Position numbers and translations under genes: made by a program. Below the pieces are notes generated by a model. It was not told the origin of the DNA. It searched no databases and was given only the letters and a program-made list of their open reading frames with translations. Source: Chloroflexota bacterium (GTDB lineage: Bacteria; Chloroflexota; Dehalococcoidia; Lucifugimonadales; UBA3495). Taken from it: 64,000 nucleotides of DNA. Position 1 is the first letter of the stretch; each line of letters begins with the position of its first letter. The DNA lies in contig JAPPMU010000033.1 of assembly GCA_028873965.1 (NCBI GenBank), forward strand, positions 1-64,000. The letters run 5' to 3'. This document shows, one piece after another, positions 1,809 to 61,136 of this stretch.

Positions 1809-1907
1809 CGTCATTCCGGCGAAAGCCGGAATCCAGTGAGTACAAATATTGTCAACATTCTGATGGCAATGATTTTCCTGGGTTCCTGCTTTCGCAGGAA
1901 CGACGGG
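1809..1907. repeat. Family-A paired palindrome
   Basis: Two imperfect palindromes face each other: CGTCATTCCGGCGAAAGCCG (continuing GAATCCAG) at the left and CCTGGGTTCCTGCTTTCGC (continuing AGGAACGACGG) at the right, separated by about 40 bp of AT-richer sequence. The same paired arrangement recurs at 4551, 8013, 47392, 57317 and 61024. It lies between genes and could fold into a long hairpin. Confidence 0.75.
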
Positions 1908-4550: not shown

Positions 4551-4629
4551 CGTCATTCCCGCGAACGCGGGAATCCAAGACGGTTTCGCTGCGCCGCACA
4601 CTGGATTCCGGCTTTCGCCGGAATGACGG
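4551..4629. repeat. Family-A paired palindrome
   Basis: CGTCATTCCCGCGAACGCGG (continuing GAATCCA) is paired with CTGGATTCCGGCTTTCGCCG (continuing GAATGACGG) about 20 bp later. It fills the short gap between the DUF1800 and GMC genes and would be transcribed in the DUF1800 leader. Confidence 0.75.
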
Positions 4630-8012: not shown

Positions 8013-8090
8013 CGTCATTCCGGCGCAAGCCGGAATCCAGAGTTCGCTGTGAATAACGACCTATGGGTTCCCGCTTTCGCGGGAACGACG
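8013..8090. repeat. Family-A paired palindrome
   Basis: CGTCATTCCGGCGCAAGCCG (continuing GAATCCAG) is paired with GGGTTCCCGCTTTCGCGGGA (continuing ACGACG) after about 25 bp. It lies between two minus-strand genes, in the region that would be the leader of the YkgJ-type gene. Confidence 0.75.
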
Positions 8091-47351: not shown

Positions 47352-47527
47352 GCAACTGTTCAGAGTTGGTGAGTCATTCGCGCGTTCAGCACGTCATTCC
47401 GGCCTTGAGCCGGAATCCAGGAAGTCCTTCCCTGCTTACCATAGCCTTTCAGCAGGCTTTTCTGGATACCGGCTTTCGCCGGTATGACGGTTCTGGTTCT
47501 GGGCCGCCCCTCAAATCTGAACAGTTG
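47352..47527. repeat. Family-A palindrome nested in an outer inverted repeat
   Basis: GCAACTGTTCAGA (47352) and TCTGAACAGTTGC (ending 47527) form a perfect 13-bp outer inverted repeat. Between them is a family-A pair: CGTCATTCCGGCCTTGAGCC (continuing GGAATCCAG) at 47392 and CTGGATACCGGCTTTCGCCG (continuing GTATGACGG) ending at 47490. The layout suggests insertion of one element in another. Confidence 0.75.
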
Positions 47528-56554: not shown

Positions 56555-57280
56555 CTATCGCGTCGCCACCGATGCGGCGCAAGCTTGGATCGCTTGCTCC
56601 CACTCGTCCAGGTCGAAGAAATGGGGGCCGGCGCCGCCGTGGTAGGCCACGTTGCCGTCGACGTCCACCAGGTACAGGCGCTCCGGCGCTGCGCCGTAGG
56701 CTTCGTCGACCGCGTTGTCCATTTCCTCGATGATGATGGGCAACCCGATGTGCAAGTCGATGCTGCACGATTGGGCAACCGCTTCCCGCTCGTCGTAGCT
56801 CCGGTGCTGGCTGAACAGCACGCCTTCCTGGACGTTGCTTTCCACCTGCCAGCCGTCGGTTGGGTGGGCTTCTTGTACGTAAACCACAAAGAACTCCACC
56901 GAGTCTTTGTATTGGCGATAGATCTGCGTCATGCGCTCCGACTGAGCGCGGAAGGGGGGTCAAGTGTAGCTCCCGAAGGCCAGGGCCACCGGCCGCCGGC
57001 CGCGAAAATCGGACAGGCGCACCCATTCCTCTGAACCCAACCGCTTGAGGGAGAAGTCGGGAGCCGCCTCGCCGACCTTGGGGCCGGTCTCGTCCCGTAC
57101 CACGATGGCTTCCACGGCGGCGCGGACTTCTGCCGGCAGTTCCTCTTGCCATCCTTCCAGCAGTTCGCGAGCCGTAATCCGTCCTCGGGCCTCCTGAATG
57201 GCGGCGACGACCCGCCGGAGATCCTGACGGTGCTCATCGCTAAGCCGACTGATTGCGTTGTCGCGCTCCGCCTTTAGCAT
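56555..57280 (-). CDS. Deiodinase-like selenoprotein (in-frame UGA = Sec107)
   Basis: Read as one gene, this gives 241 residues with selenocysteine at codon 107 (TGA at 56962-56960). The frame is open on both sides of the TGA. The active-site segment is VALAFGSYT-Sec-PPFRAQSER, matching the Sec-centred motif of iodothyronine deiodinases and their thioredoxin-fold relatives. The rest agrees: FFVVYVQEAHPTDGW and YGAAPERLYLVDVDGNV parallel deiodinase EAH-x-DGW and PERLY. Residues 1-65 are a helical N-terminal domain. GGAGG precedes the ATG. A SECIS-like hairpin follows the TGA. It may be a redox enzyme or dehalogenase; substrate unknown. Confidence 0.85.
56933..56949 (-). promoter_or_regulatory. 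Putative bacterial SECIS hairpin
   Basis: Directly after the TGA (minus strand) come 10 nt, then GCGCTC, loop AGTCG, GAGCGC: a 6-bp perfect stem with a 5-nt loop whose second base is G. The apical loop begins 16 nt past the TGA, within the spacing I recall for bacterial SECIS elements. This element would recruit SelB-Sec-tRNA to decode the UGA. Confidence 0.7.
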
Positions 57281-57316
57281 GTTCGCCTCCGCTGTTGTAT
57301 TGGAAGTAGTCCAACT

Positions 57317-57418
57317 GTCATTCCCGCGAAAGCGGGGATCCAGTAACCGAAATCGTTAACGTTACTCCGGATTGATTTACCACAAAGCCAGTGGATTCCG
57401 GCTTTCGCCGGAATGACG
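57317..57418. repeat. Family-A paired palindrome
   Basis: TGTCATTCCCGCGAAAGCGG (continuing GGATCCAG) pairs with GTGGATTCCGGCTTTCGCCG (continuing GAATGACGAG). It separates the VOC gene at 57451 from the selenoprotein gene on the same strand. Confidence 0.75.
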
Positions 57419-57450: not shown

Positions 57451-58005
57451 TTATCGGCTTCCCACCGCCGTCGCGCTCAGTTCGCGAATGGCGTCCACCG
57501 TTTGCGGACTGGGCGGCTTGCCCATTTCCACGCCCCGGACGGCTTCCCAGGATCGCAGCACGTCCGCCATGACCGCTTCGTCGGACTGGTCAATGTCGAT
57601 GGGGATGCCCACCTGCGCCCATGACGTGTAACCGGTGAGCCAGAACACCTCGGTGGGGTTGTTCTCCGGGTCGCGGAAGTAGCAGCCGATGGCGCTGGCG
57701 TGGGTGACGATGCGGTCCAATTGGTAACCGCGTTCGAGGATGCGCCGCTTGAAATCGCGCAGGTCATCGAGGGATTCCACCCGCATTGAAATCTGCTGGA
57801 TCCAGTGCGGATCGTCCAGCGAGGGCCGTCCGTTGATCAGGGCAATCTCGTGATCGCAACTTTCCGGGTCTGCGCTGTAAAAGGCGCCCAACGGGCCGAC
57901 CTTGGTCCGCTGCATTCCCATGAAATTCTCGTAGAAGTCCATCATGAGTTCGAGGTCATGCACGTAGAAGCCGATATGACCGAGGCCCGTAACTTTCGCC
58001 GACAT
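57451..58005 (-). CDS. VOC-superfamily dioxygenase-like protein
   Basis: The 184-residue protein has two VOC modules: LGHIGFYVHDLELMMDFYEN at the N-terminus and CYFRDPENNPTEVFWLTGY in the middle, with metal-ligand candidates His (LGHIG), His (IQQISMR region, weak) and Glu (TEVFW). The form resembles 2,3-dihydroxybiphenyl-dioxygenase-like or bleomycin-resistance-like VOC proteins. GAGGAG precedes ATG 58005; the upstream extension to 58143 is repeat sequence. It is divergent from the MFS gene at 58480, an arrangement repeated at 61224/62124. Confidence 0.83.
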   Translation of the reverse strand: MSAKVTGLGHIGFYVHDLELMMDFYENFMGMQRTKVGPLGAFYSADPESCDHEIALINGRPSLDDPHWIQQISMRVESLDDLRDFKRRILERGYQLDRIVTHASAIGCYFRDPENNPTEVFWLTGYTSWAQVGIPIDIDQSDEAVMADVLRSWEAVRGVEMGKPPSPQTVDAIRELSATAVGSR

Positions 58006-58080
58006 GTTCAACTCCTCAAATGATTGGCATGTGGGCGCATTATGCGCTTTCCCCGGTTCTCGTGTCGACCTGGTCGGGAC

Positions 58081-58335
58081 CTCATGCGTACCCACTTGGC
58101 GCAATCCGTCATTGCGACCCCGCACTTGATGCGGGGGTGGCAATCTCGTCGAGGTAACGGGCGTCGCTGCGGTAACGAGATCGCCGCGTCGCTGTGCTCC
58201 TCGCGATGAATTACAACGGCGTCACTCCGGCGAAAGCCGGAGTCCGGAGACTGTGATTCTCACGCGTACCCAGTTTGTCATCGCCACGTCGCTGCGCTCG
58301 CAATGACGGTTCCGATCAAACTGGGTACGCGCGAG
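58081..58335. repeat. Cluster of family-B and family-A elements
   Basis: A family-B left part (CTCATGCGTACCCACTTGGC, 58081-58209) lacks its right terminus. A half family-A palindrome follows (58219-58247, CGTCACTCCGGCGAAAGCCG and so on), then a short complete family-B copy (58259-58335, CTCACGCGTACCCAG ... CTGGGTACGCGCGAG). No gene is seen in the 470-bp gap between the VOC and MFS genes. Confidence 0.75.
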
Positions 58336-61009: not shown

Positions 61010-61136
61010 GTGTTGACATTTCACCGTCGTTCCTGCGAAAGCAGGAACCCAGAAAAGCCTCTGCTACAGGAACGTTGGGCGGATTTTACGCTCACTGGAT
61101 TCCGGCTTTCGCCGGAATGACGGCATTTGTCAACAG
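61010..61136. repeat. Family-A pair inside an outer TGTTGACA repeat
   Basis: TGTTGACA at the left and TGTCAACA at the right enclose CCGTCGTTCCTGCGAAAGCA (continuing GGAACCCAG) and CTGGATTCCGGCTTTCGCCG (continuing GAATGACGG). Fills the gap after the NHL gene. Confidence 0.7.

What the first reader, a model, noticed from the sequence alone, without database searches (positions are those of the whole stretch)
56555..57280. Deiodinase-like selenoprotein with in-frame UGA and SECIS-like hairpin
A TGA at 56962-56960 divides what is otherwise one continuous frame. Upstream reads FGSYT and downstream PPFRAQ; in deiodinases the same place reads G-S/N-C-T-Sec-P-x-F. Flanking motifs EAHPTDGW and APERLYLVD agree with the deiodinase family. 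A 6-bp hairpin (56949-56933) with a G in the loop starts 10 nt past the TGA, as bacterial SECIS elements do. An ordinary broken gene would not place the stop precisely at the catalytic residue. A bacterial deiodinase relative suggests reductive dehalogenation or a redox role. The 65-residue helical N-terminal extension looks unusual.
Basis: partly seen in the sequence, partly recalled or inferred. Interest (0 to 1): 0.87.

Follow-up and report, generated by a model that had tools for sequence, protein, structure and literature searches.

The report
Bacterial deiodinase-like selenoprotein gene
A Chloroflexota bacterium carries a gene that reads a UGA "stop" codon as selenocysteine in the active site of a protein whose nearest solved relatives are the animal enzymes that remove iodine from thyroid hormone; bacterial relatives of this kind have been known from sequence since 2005, but what they do has not been shown.

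Summary
The TGA at 56962-56960 (-) splits one 241-codon frame. Read as Sec, the protein matches PF00837 (119 bits, cut-off 27), and its best solved matches by sequence and by fold are mouse Dio3 and Dio2. In 19 of 19 Chloroflexota loci that cover the codon it is TGA; in the family branch that also holds the two animal rows, 42 of 42 bacterial rows have it. The genome has SelA, SelB, tRNA-Sec and a SelD with its own in-frame TGA. The 6-bp hairpin 10 nt past the TGA is far stronger than synonymous recoding predicts; covariation adds little. Code downstream of the TGA is under purifying selection.

The catalytic and omega-loop residues of Dio3 are kept. Those at thyroxine's amino-acid end (Tyr257, Arg275) and the Dio cysteines (168, 239) are not. 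A conserved Cys172 stands in; across the family it alternates with a Cys three residues after Sec. Best reading: Sec-dependent deiodinase-type chemistry on another, perhaps halogenated, substrate, with Cys172 as resolving thiol (inferred). Bacterial deiodinase-like selenoproteins were described in 2005 (PMC1088965): a new member of a known kind.

The parts
56555..57280 (-). Deiodinase-like selenoprotein gene, 241 codons with Sec at 107, TAG stop
   Evidence: Open with TGA as Sec; PF00837 119.1 bits, cut-off 27; related frames with the same TGA in 19 of 19 covering loci
56960..56962 (-). In-frame TGA, Sec codon 107, aligned with Sec170 of mouse Dio3
56933..56949 (-). SECIS-like hairpin, 6 bp, loop AGUCG, 10 nt after the TGA
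   Evidence: 5.45 of 6 pairs in 20 sequences against 3.25 (sd 0.23) in synonymous recodings; 90.8% of cells paired
57086..57280 (-). N-terminal helical extension, residues 1-65
   Evidence: Predicted helices 3-11, 15-31, 37-42, 50-64 with moderate confidence; conserved in the clade
56846..56881 (-). Codons of residues 134-145, Y-V-Q-E-A-H-P-T-D-G-W-Q: start of the deiodinase omega loop (AHxxDGW)
   Evidence: loop signature as given in PMC7506546 (passages)
56765..56767 (-). Codon of Cys172, proposed resolving cysteine
   Evidence: Invariant in the 18 rows; alternation with Cys at Sec+3; role inferred

Best explanation
The gene makes a soluble thioredoxin-fold selenoprotein of the bacterial deiodinase-like family. 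SelB and Sec-tRNA read the UGA, helped by the hairpin just downstream, and put Sec at residue 107, the place of Sec170 in mouse Dio3. Ser104, Thr106, Tyr134, Glu137, His139, Asp142, Gly143, Trp144, Gln158, His159 and Arg165 form the same active-site network and loop anchor as in Dio3. The selenolate most likely takes a halogen off an aromatic substrate that is not thyroxine (I put this step at about 0.4; peroxide or disulfide reduction is the main rival), and the oxidised selenium is resolved by Cys172 and then by a cellular thiol. Shown by sequence: the Sec codon, the machinery, the hairpin, the fold family, the conserved network, selection past the TGA. Inferred: Sec insertion in the cell, the role of Cys172, the reaction and its substrate.
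For: Same TGA in 19 of 19 covering loci and 48 of 49 loci; Sec genes and tRNA over cut-off; hairpin against synonymous null; dN/dS 0.07-0.18 past the TGA against 16 relatives; best solved matches Dio3 2.3e-26 and Dio2 9.1e-23, next 0.0019, same two first by fold; Dio3 network residues kept (roles); animal rows fall on the same side of a 100/99 branch as the window; Cys172 / Sec+3 Cys alternation in 53 of 56 Sec rows.
Against: No enzymatic or proteomic evidence. The residues that hold thyroxine's amino-acid end (Tyr257, Arg275) and Dio's Cys168 and Cys239 are not kept, and Trp144 is Arg in 5 of 20 clade members. Covariation in the hairpin does not exceed shuffles clearly and codon dealing within columns keeps the pairing. 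selA co-occurrence is uninformative: 30 of 37 genomes with the Sec form against 17 of 20 without a match. No gene neighbour is kept across the clade. The genome has 7.3% contamination. The model's loop 138-154 is of low confidence.
Confidence: 0.6

Rival explanations
1. It is a Sec-containing peroxidase or thiol-disulfide reductase (peroxiredoxin- or ResA-like) that shares the deiodinase sequence core but never acts on a halogen.
For: Thioredoxin fold; AhpC-TSA and Redoxin matches over cut-off (40.7 and 34.8 bits); ResA next after Dio in the fold search; a resolving-type Cys. PMC1088965 suggests a redox role, as bacteria have no thyroid hormone (passages).
Against: PF00837 scores far higher (119 bits); the Dio-specific loop AHxxDGW and its anchor residues are kept, which a plain peroxidase does not need.
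Confidence: 0.35
2. A broken gene: the TGA is a real stop and the downstream part is a decaying remnant or a separate short protein.
For: The annotation code gives two ORFs of 106 and 125 residues.
Against: Same stop codon at the same place in 19 of 19 other loci; dN/dS 0.07-0.18 downstream; Sec machinery present; hairpin.
Confidence: 0.02
3. The organism reads TGA as another amino acid (Trp or Cys) throughout.
For: None found beyond the open frame.
Against: 22 of 46 non-overlapping mechanical ORFs of 200 or more codons in the window end in TGA; a full Sec system is present.
Confidence: 0.01

Closest known systems
Bacterial deiodinase-like selenoproteins (PF00837; PMC1088965 of 2005, PMC2398784 of 2008)
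   Same: Pfam family, Sec at the active site, bacterial SECIS-type hairpin; those papers list 4 Sec and 6 Cys sequences (Sargasso Sea) and 22 Sec and 21 Cys (GOS) (passages)
   Different: PMC13188914 lists the motif as UxxC (passages); the window has UPPF with a Cys at 172 instead. The papers' sequences were not compared with the window.
Animal iodothyronine deiodinases Dio3 (4tr3) and Dio2 (9h48)
   Same: Best solved matches by sequence and fold; S-x-T-Sec-P-P-F, Tyr197, Glu200, His202, Asp205, Gly206, Trp207, His219, Arg225 and Arg260 kept
   Different: Tyr257, Phe258, Arg275, Cys168, Arg176 and Cys239 not kept; bacterial-type hairpin inside the coding region; helical N-terminal extension instead of the membrane region of animal Dio (that region recalled and in passage)
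NCBIfam NF038285 deiodinase family protein
   Same: 204.8 bits over residues 60-232, profile 169-341 of 347
   Different: Below the model's cut-off of 250; the first 168 profile positions are not matched
ResA-type thiol-disulfide oxidoreductases
   Same: Thioredoxin fold
   Different: 17-20% identity in the fold search; no omega loop; PRK03147 38.2 bits, cut-off 170

Membership tests
PF00837 T4_deiodinase family | Score over the curated cut-off | tested here: met
   119.1 bits against 27
PF00837 T4_deiodinase family | Sec (or Cys) at the active site after S-x-T | tested here: met
   TGA aligned with Sec170 of Dio3
PF00837 T4_deiodinase family | Omega-loop signature AHxxDGW | tested here: met
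   AHPTDGW at 138-144; signature from PMC7506546 passages
Iodothyronine deiodinase in the strict sense | Residues at the amino-acid end of thyroxine (Dio3 Tyr257, Arg275) | tested here: not met
   A198 and A217 in the window. Dio1 and Dio2 also differ at Arg275 (passages), so this is a Dio3-type feature
Iodothyronine deiodinase in the strict sense | Deiodination of iodothyronines | not testable with these tools
   Needs an enzyme assay
Bacterial selenoprotein | In-frame TGA with Sec machinery in the genome | tested here: met
Bacterial selenoprotein | SECIS-like hairpin just downstream with G in the apical loop | tested here: met
   56949-56933; synonymous null; no Rfam match there
Bacterial selenoprotein | Selenium in the protein | not testable with these tools
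   Needs 75Se label or mass spectrometry
NCBIfam NF038285 (deiodinase family protein) | Score over the curated cut-off | tested here: not met
   204.8 bits against 250

The most novel reading that the evidence does not exclude
This Chloroflexota clade holds a true Sec-dependent bacterial reductive dehalogenase that works on halogenated phenols or diphenyl ethers other than thyroid hormone, with Cys172 as resolving thiol, and it belongs to the bacterial branch from which the animal deiodinases came.
Probability: 0.3. Interest if true: 0.78.

Novelty: new member of a known kind. Interest (0 to 1): 0.48.

Why it matters
It gives a set of genomes in which the bacterial relatives of thyroid-hormone deiodinases keep Sec and the deiodinase omega loop (42 of 42 long-loop rows have Sec). 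That makes an open question testable: what deiodinase chemistry was for before thyroid hormone, and whether bacteria dehalogenate aromatics with a selenoenzyme. It is also a gene that table-11 ORF calling splits in two.

Tried and rejected
Broken-gene and code-change readings were considered and rejected (see rivals). Gene context: the upstream VOC-superfamily gene is found beside the gene in 4 of 19 loci (L001, L002, L006, L008; four of the 19 loci have under 600 bases upstream), its likeness to catechol 2,3-dioxygenase is weak (27.7 bits, cut-off 320), and clustering of neighbours showed no partner kept across the clade; so context is not used as proof of an aromatic pathway. Co-occurrence with selA is uninformative: of 37 genomes with the Sec form, 30 have selA over the cut-off, 3 have pieces (G272, G357, G158), 4 have none or only a weak match (G137, G225, G018, G584); of 20 without a match 17 have it. 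Of those seven, six have a tRNA-Sec over the cut-off, G584 not. No Rfam match at the hairpin up to E 1. No relative in the phage records nor confirmed in viral contigs (52 pattern matches, none confirmed); 2 remote relatives in plasmids. The first script for the class loci ignored strand and is replaced; the SelD reading used a wrong frame and is replaced. A search for inverted repeats upstream gave none by that tool.

Full report
Observation. On the minus strand a TGA at 56962-56960 lies in an otherwise open frame from ATG 57280-57278 to TAG 56557-56555. Table 11 splits it into ORFs of 106 and 125 residues (the second starts at an inner ATG). With TGA as Sec the protein has 241 residues, Sec at 107. 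It scores 119.1 bits with PF00837 (cut-off 27); the downstream part alone scores 76.5 and the upstream part 13.7.

Is the TGA a codon? A scan of genome contigs found 20 related loci, all labelled Chloroflexi/Chloroflexota, Dehalococcoidia or SAR202; 19 of 19 that cover the codon have TGA in the same place, at 58-81% identity of the best segment. PF00837 searched in 393 genomes of the class matched 46 at E 0.001 or better, 33 over the cut-off; 37 of the 40 places over the cut-off contain a TGA (counted by me). With the 30 loci fetched there (one is the window itself) and the 19 above, 48 of 49 have TGA at the aligned active-site codon; the exception, L070, has Thr. Of the other two places without a TGA, one (G090, L103) has Cys and one starts past the codon. 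In 400 genomes of the phylum 26 matched, 13 over the cut-off; of the 11 new loci over it, 8 have TGA there, L083 has Cys, L086 Gly and L084 Ser. The three non-Sec rows in the tree (L070, L083, L086) lie in the divergent short-loop branch; L084 and L103 were not in the tree and are put there by their motifs.

Machinery. The window's genome (3.88 Mb, 70 contigs, 96.9% complete, 7.3% contamination) has SelB (356.9 bits), tRNA-Sec (66.4, gathering 47), SelA (542.2) and SelD (377.6), each over its cut-off. SelD itself carries one in-frame TGA, in HCAGUAAK, with a hairpin downstream. TGA is also a normal stop: 22 of 46 non-overlapping mechanical ORFs of 200 or more codons in the window end in it. 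SelA is as frequent in relatives without a PF00837 match (17 of 20) as in genomes with the Sec form (30 of 37), so co-occurrence is no evidence.

Hairpin. GCGCTC-AGTCG-GAGCGC starts 10 nt after the TGA. In the 20 clade sequences 90.8% of 120 pair cells are standard pairs; slid registers give 18-63%. Recoding the same peptides with synonymous codons gives 3.25 of 6 pairs (sd 0.23, largest 3.90 in 500) against 5.45 observed, and -3.41 against -8.54 kcal/mol. For 48 Sec sequences in this fixed register it is 4.54 against 3.11 (sd 0.14); several of the more distant ones have only 1 or 3 of the 6 pairs. Against the hairpin: dealing codons among clade members column by column keeps the pairing (5.43), so the signal lies in shared codon choice, not in covariation; two pairs have changes on both sides (3 cells), reached by 67 and 44 of 500 shuffles. 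Size and spacing resemble the minimal E. coli fdhF element, 17 nt at 11 nt from UGA (recalled).

Selection. Against 16 of the 19 relatives, dN/dS is 0.07-0.18 downstream of the TGA (my division of the printed dN and dS), and downstream identity is above upstream identity in each pair.

Fold and residues. The closest solved sequences are mouse Dio3 (2.3e-26) and Dio2 (9.1e-23); the next is at 0.0019. The AlphaFold2 model (18 sequences, mean pLDDT 79.7; 138-146 and 152-154 under 50) has Dio2 and Dio3 as the first two Foldseek matches, then ResA structures. Counting from Sec170 in the printed alignment, Dio3 Ser167, Thr169, Sec170, Pro171, Pro172, Phe173, Tyr197, Glu200, His202, Asp205, Gly206, Trp207, Gln218, His219, Arg225 and Arg260 are S104, T106, U107, P108, P109, F110, Y134, E137, H139, D142, G143, W144, Q158, H159, R165 and R201 here. 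Cys168, Arg176, Cys239, Tyr257, Phe258 and Arg275 are Y105, Q113, L180, A198, P199 and A217. Roles (proton relay or loop anchor; Tyr257 and Arg275 at the amino-acid end of thyroxine) are from passages of PMC7506546 and PMC11592359; the same passages say that Arg275 itself differs in Dio1 and Dio2. Variation: W144 is Arg in 5 of the 20 clade members, and H159 is His in 21 of 42 long-loop bacterial rows, Pro or Ala in the other 21.

Cysteines. Of 56 Sec-containing rows, 45 have Phe at Sec+3 and Cys at column 172, 8 have Cys at Sec+3 and none at 172, and 3 have neither. The rows are related, so these are not independent events, but it suggests two alternative resolving cysteines; Dio2 and Dio3 have Cys at a third place (column 180, Dio3 Cys239), and PMC7506546 calls Cys239 too distant to resolve Sec170 directly (passage). 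The role of Cys172 is inferred.

Tree. In an unrooted tree of 61 rows a 100/99 branch parts 42 long-loop bacterial rows plus Dio2 and Dio3 from 17 short-loop rows. The animal rows have long branches; their exact place (with L079, 87/63) is unsure, and the tree holds bacteria of one phylum only.

Context. The upstream VOC-superfamily gene (57451-58143, -) is beside the gene in 4 of 19 loci. The first 65 residues are predicted helical and conserved in the clade; their function is unknown.

Known. PMC1088965 (passages) described 4 Sec and 6 Cys bacterial deiodinase-like sequences with bacterial SECIS elements. PMC2398784 (passages) lists 22 Sec and 21 Cys. PMC13188914 (passages) gives the motif as UxxC and says that the functions of most selenoproteins in its list remain largely unknown (the passage is cut). 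The held library has no paper with both 'SAR202' and 'selenoprotein'; other searches showed listings only, and I saw in them no experimental study of a bacterial deiodinase-like protein. So the kind is known; the Chloroflexota clade with intact omega loop and the cysteine pattern are what is added here.

Noticed in passing
window 1809-1835, 4551-4577, 4602-4628, 8013-8039, 8064-8090, 47463-47489, 57316-57342, 57392-57418, 58220-58246, 61096-61122: A dispersed 27-base palindromic repeat (CGTCATTCCSGCGAAAGCSGGAATCCA), 10 copies with up to 3 mismatches, none expected by chance; a pair lies just upstream of the gene, between it and the VOC gene.
   Followed up: partly
L044 (G000:C10:54762-55679): SelD of the same genome is itself a selenoprotein, with one in-frame TGA in HCAGUAAK followed by a hairpin.
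   Followed up: partly
G276 and G342 (class genomes): Three PF00837 places over the cut-off with TGA in each of these genomes, a small paralogous set; those read (L067, L071) are of the short-loop UxxC type.
   Followed up: no
L059, codon in EAHPIDGW-TGA-LGKG: A second in-frame TGA where the neighbours have Trp (DGWWLG): sequence error, decay or a second recoding.
   Followed up: no
L070, L084, L086: PF00837 relatives with Thr, Ser or Gly in place of Sec/Cys, so probably without this redox chemistry.
   Followed up: partly
window 57451-58143 (-): VOC-superfamily (glyoxalase/dioxygenase) gene directly upstream, 83-91% identical copies beside the gene in L001, L002, L006 and L008; weak likeness to catechol 2,3-dioxygenase.
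   Followed up: partly
L001-L019 record titles: Several of these assemblies are, as I recall and did not check, from marine sponges, whose brominated phenols and diphenyl ethers would be candidate substrates.
   Followed up: no
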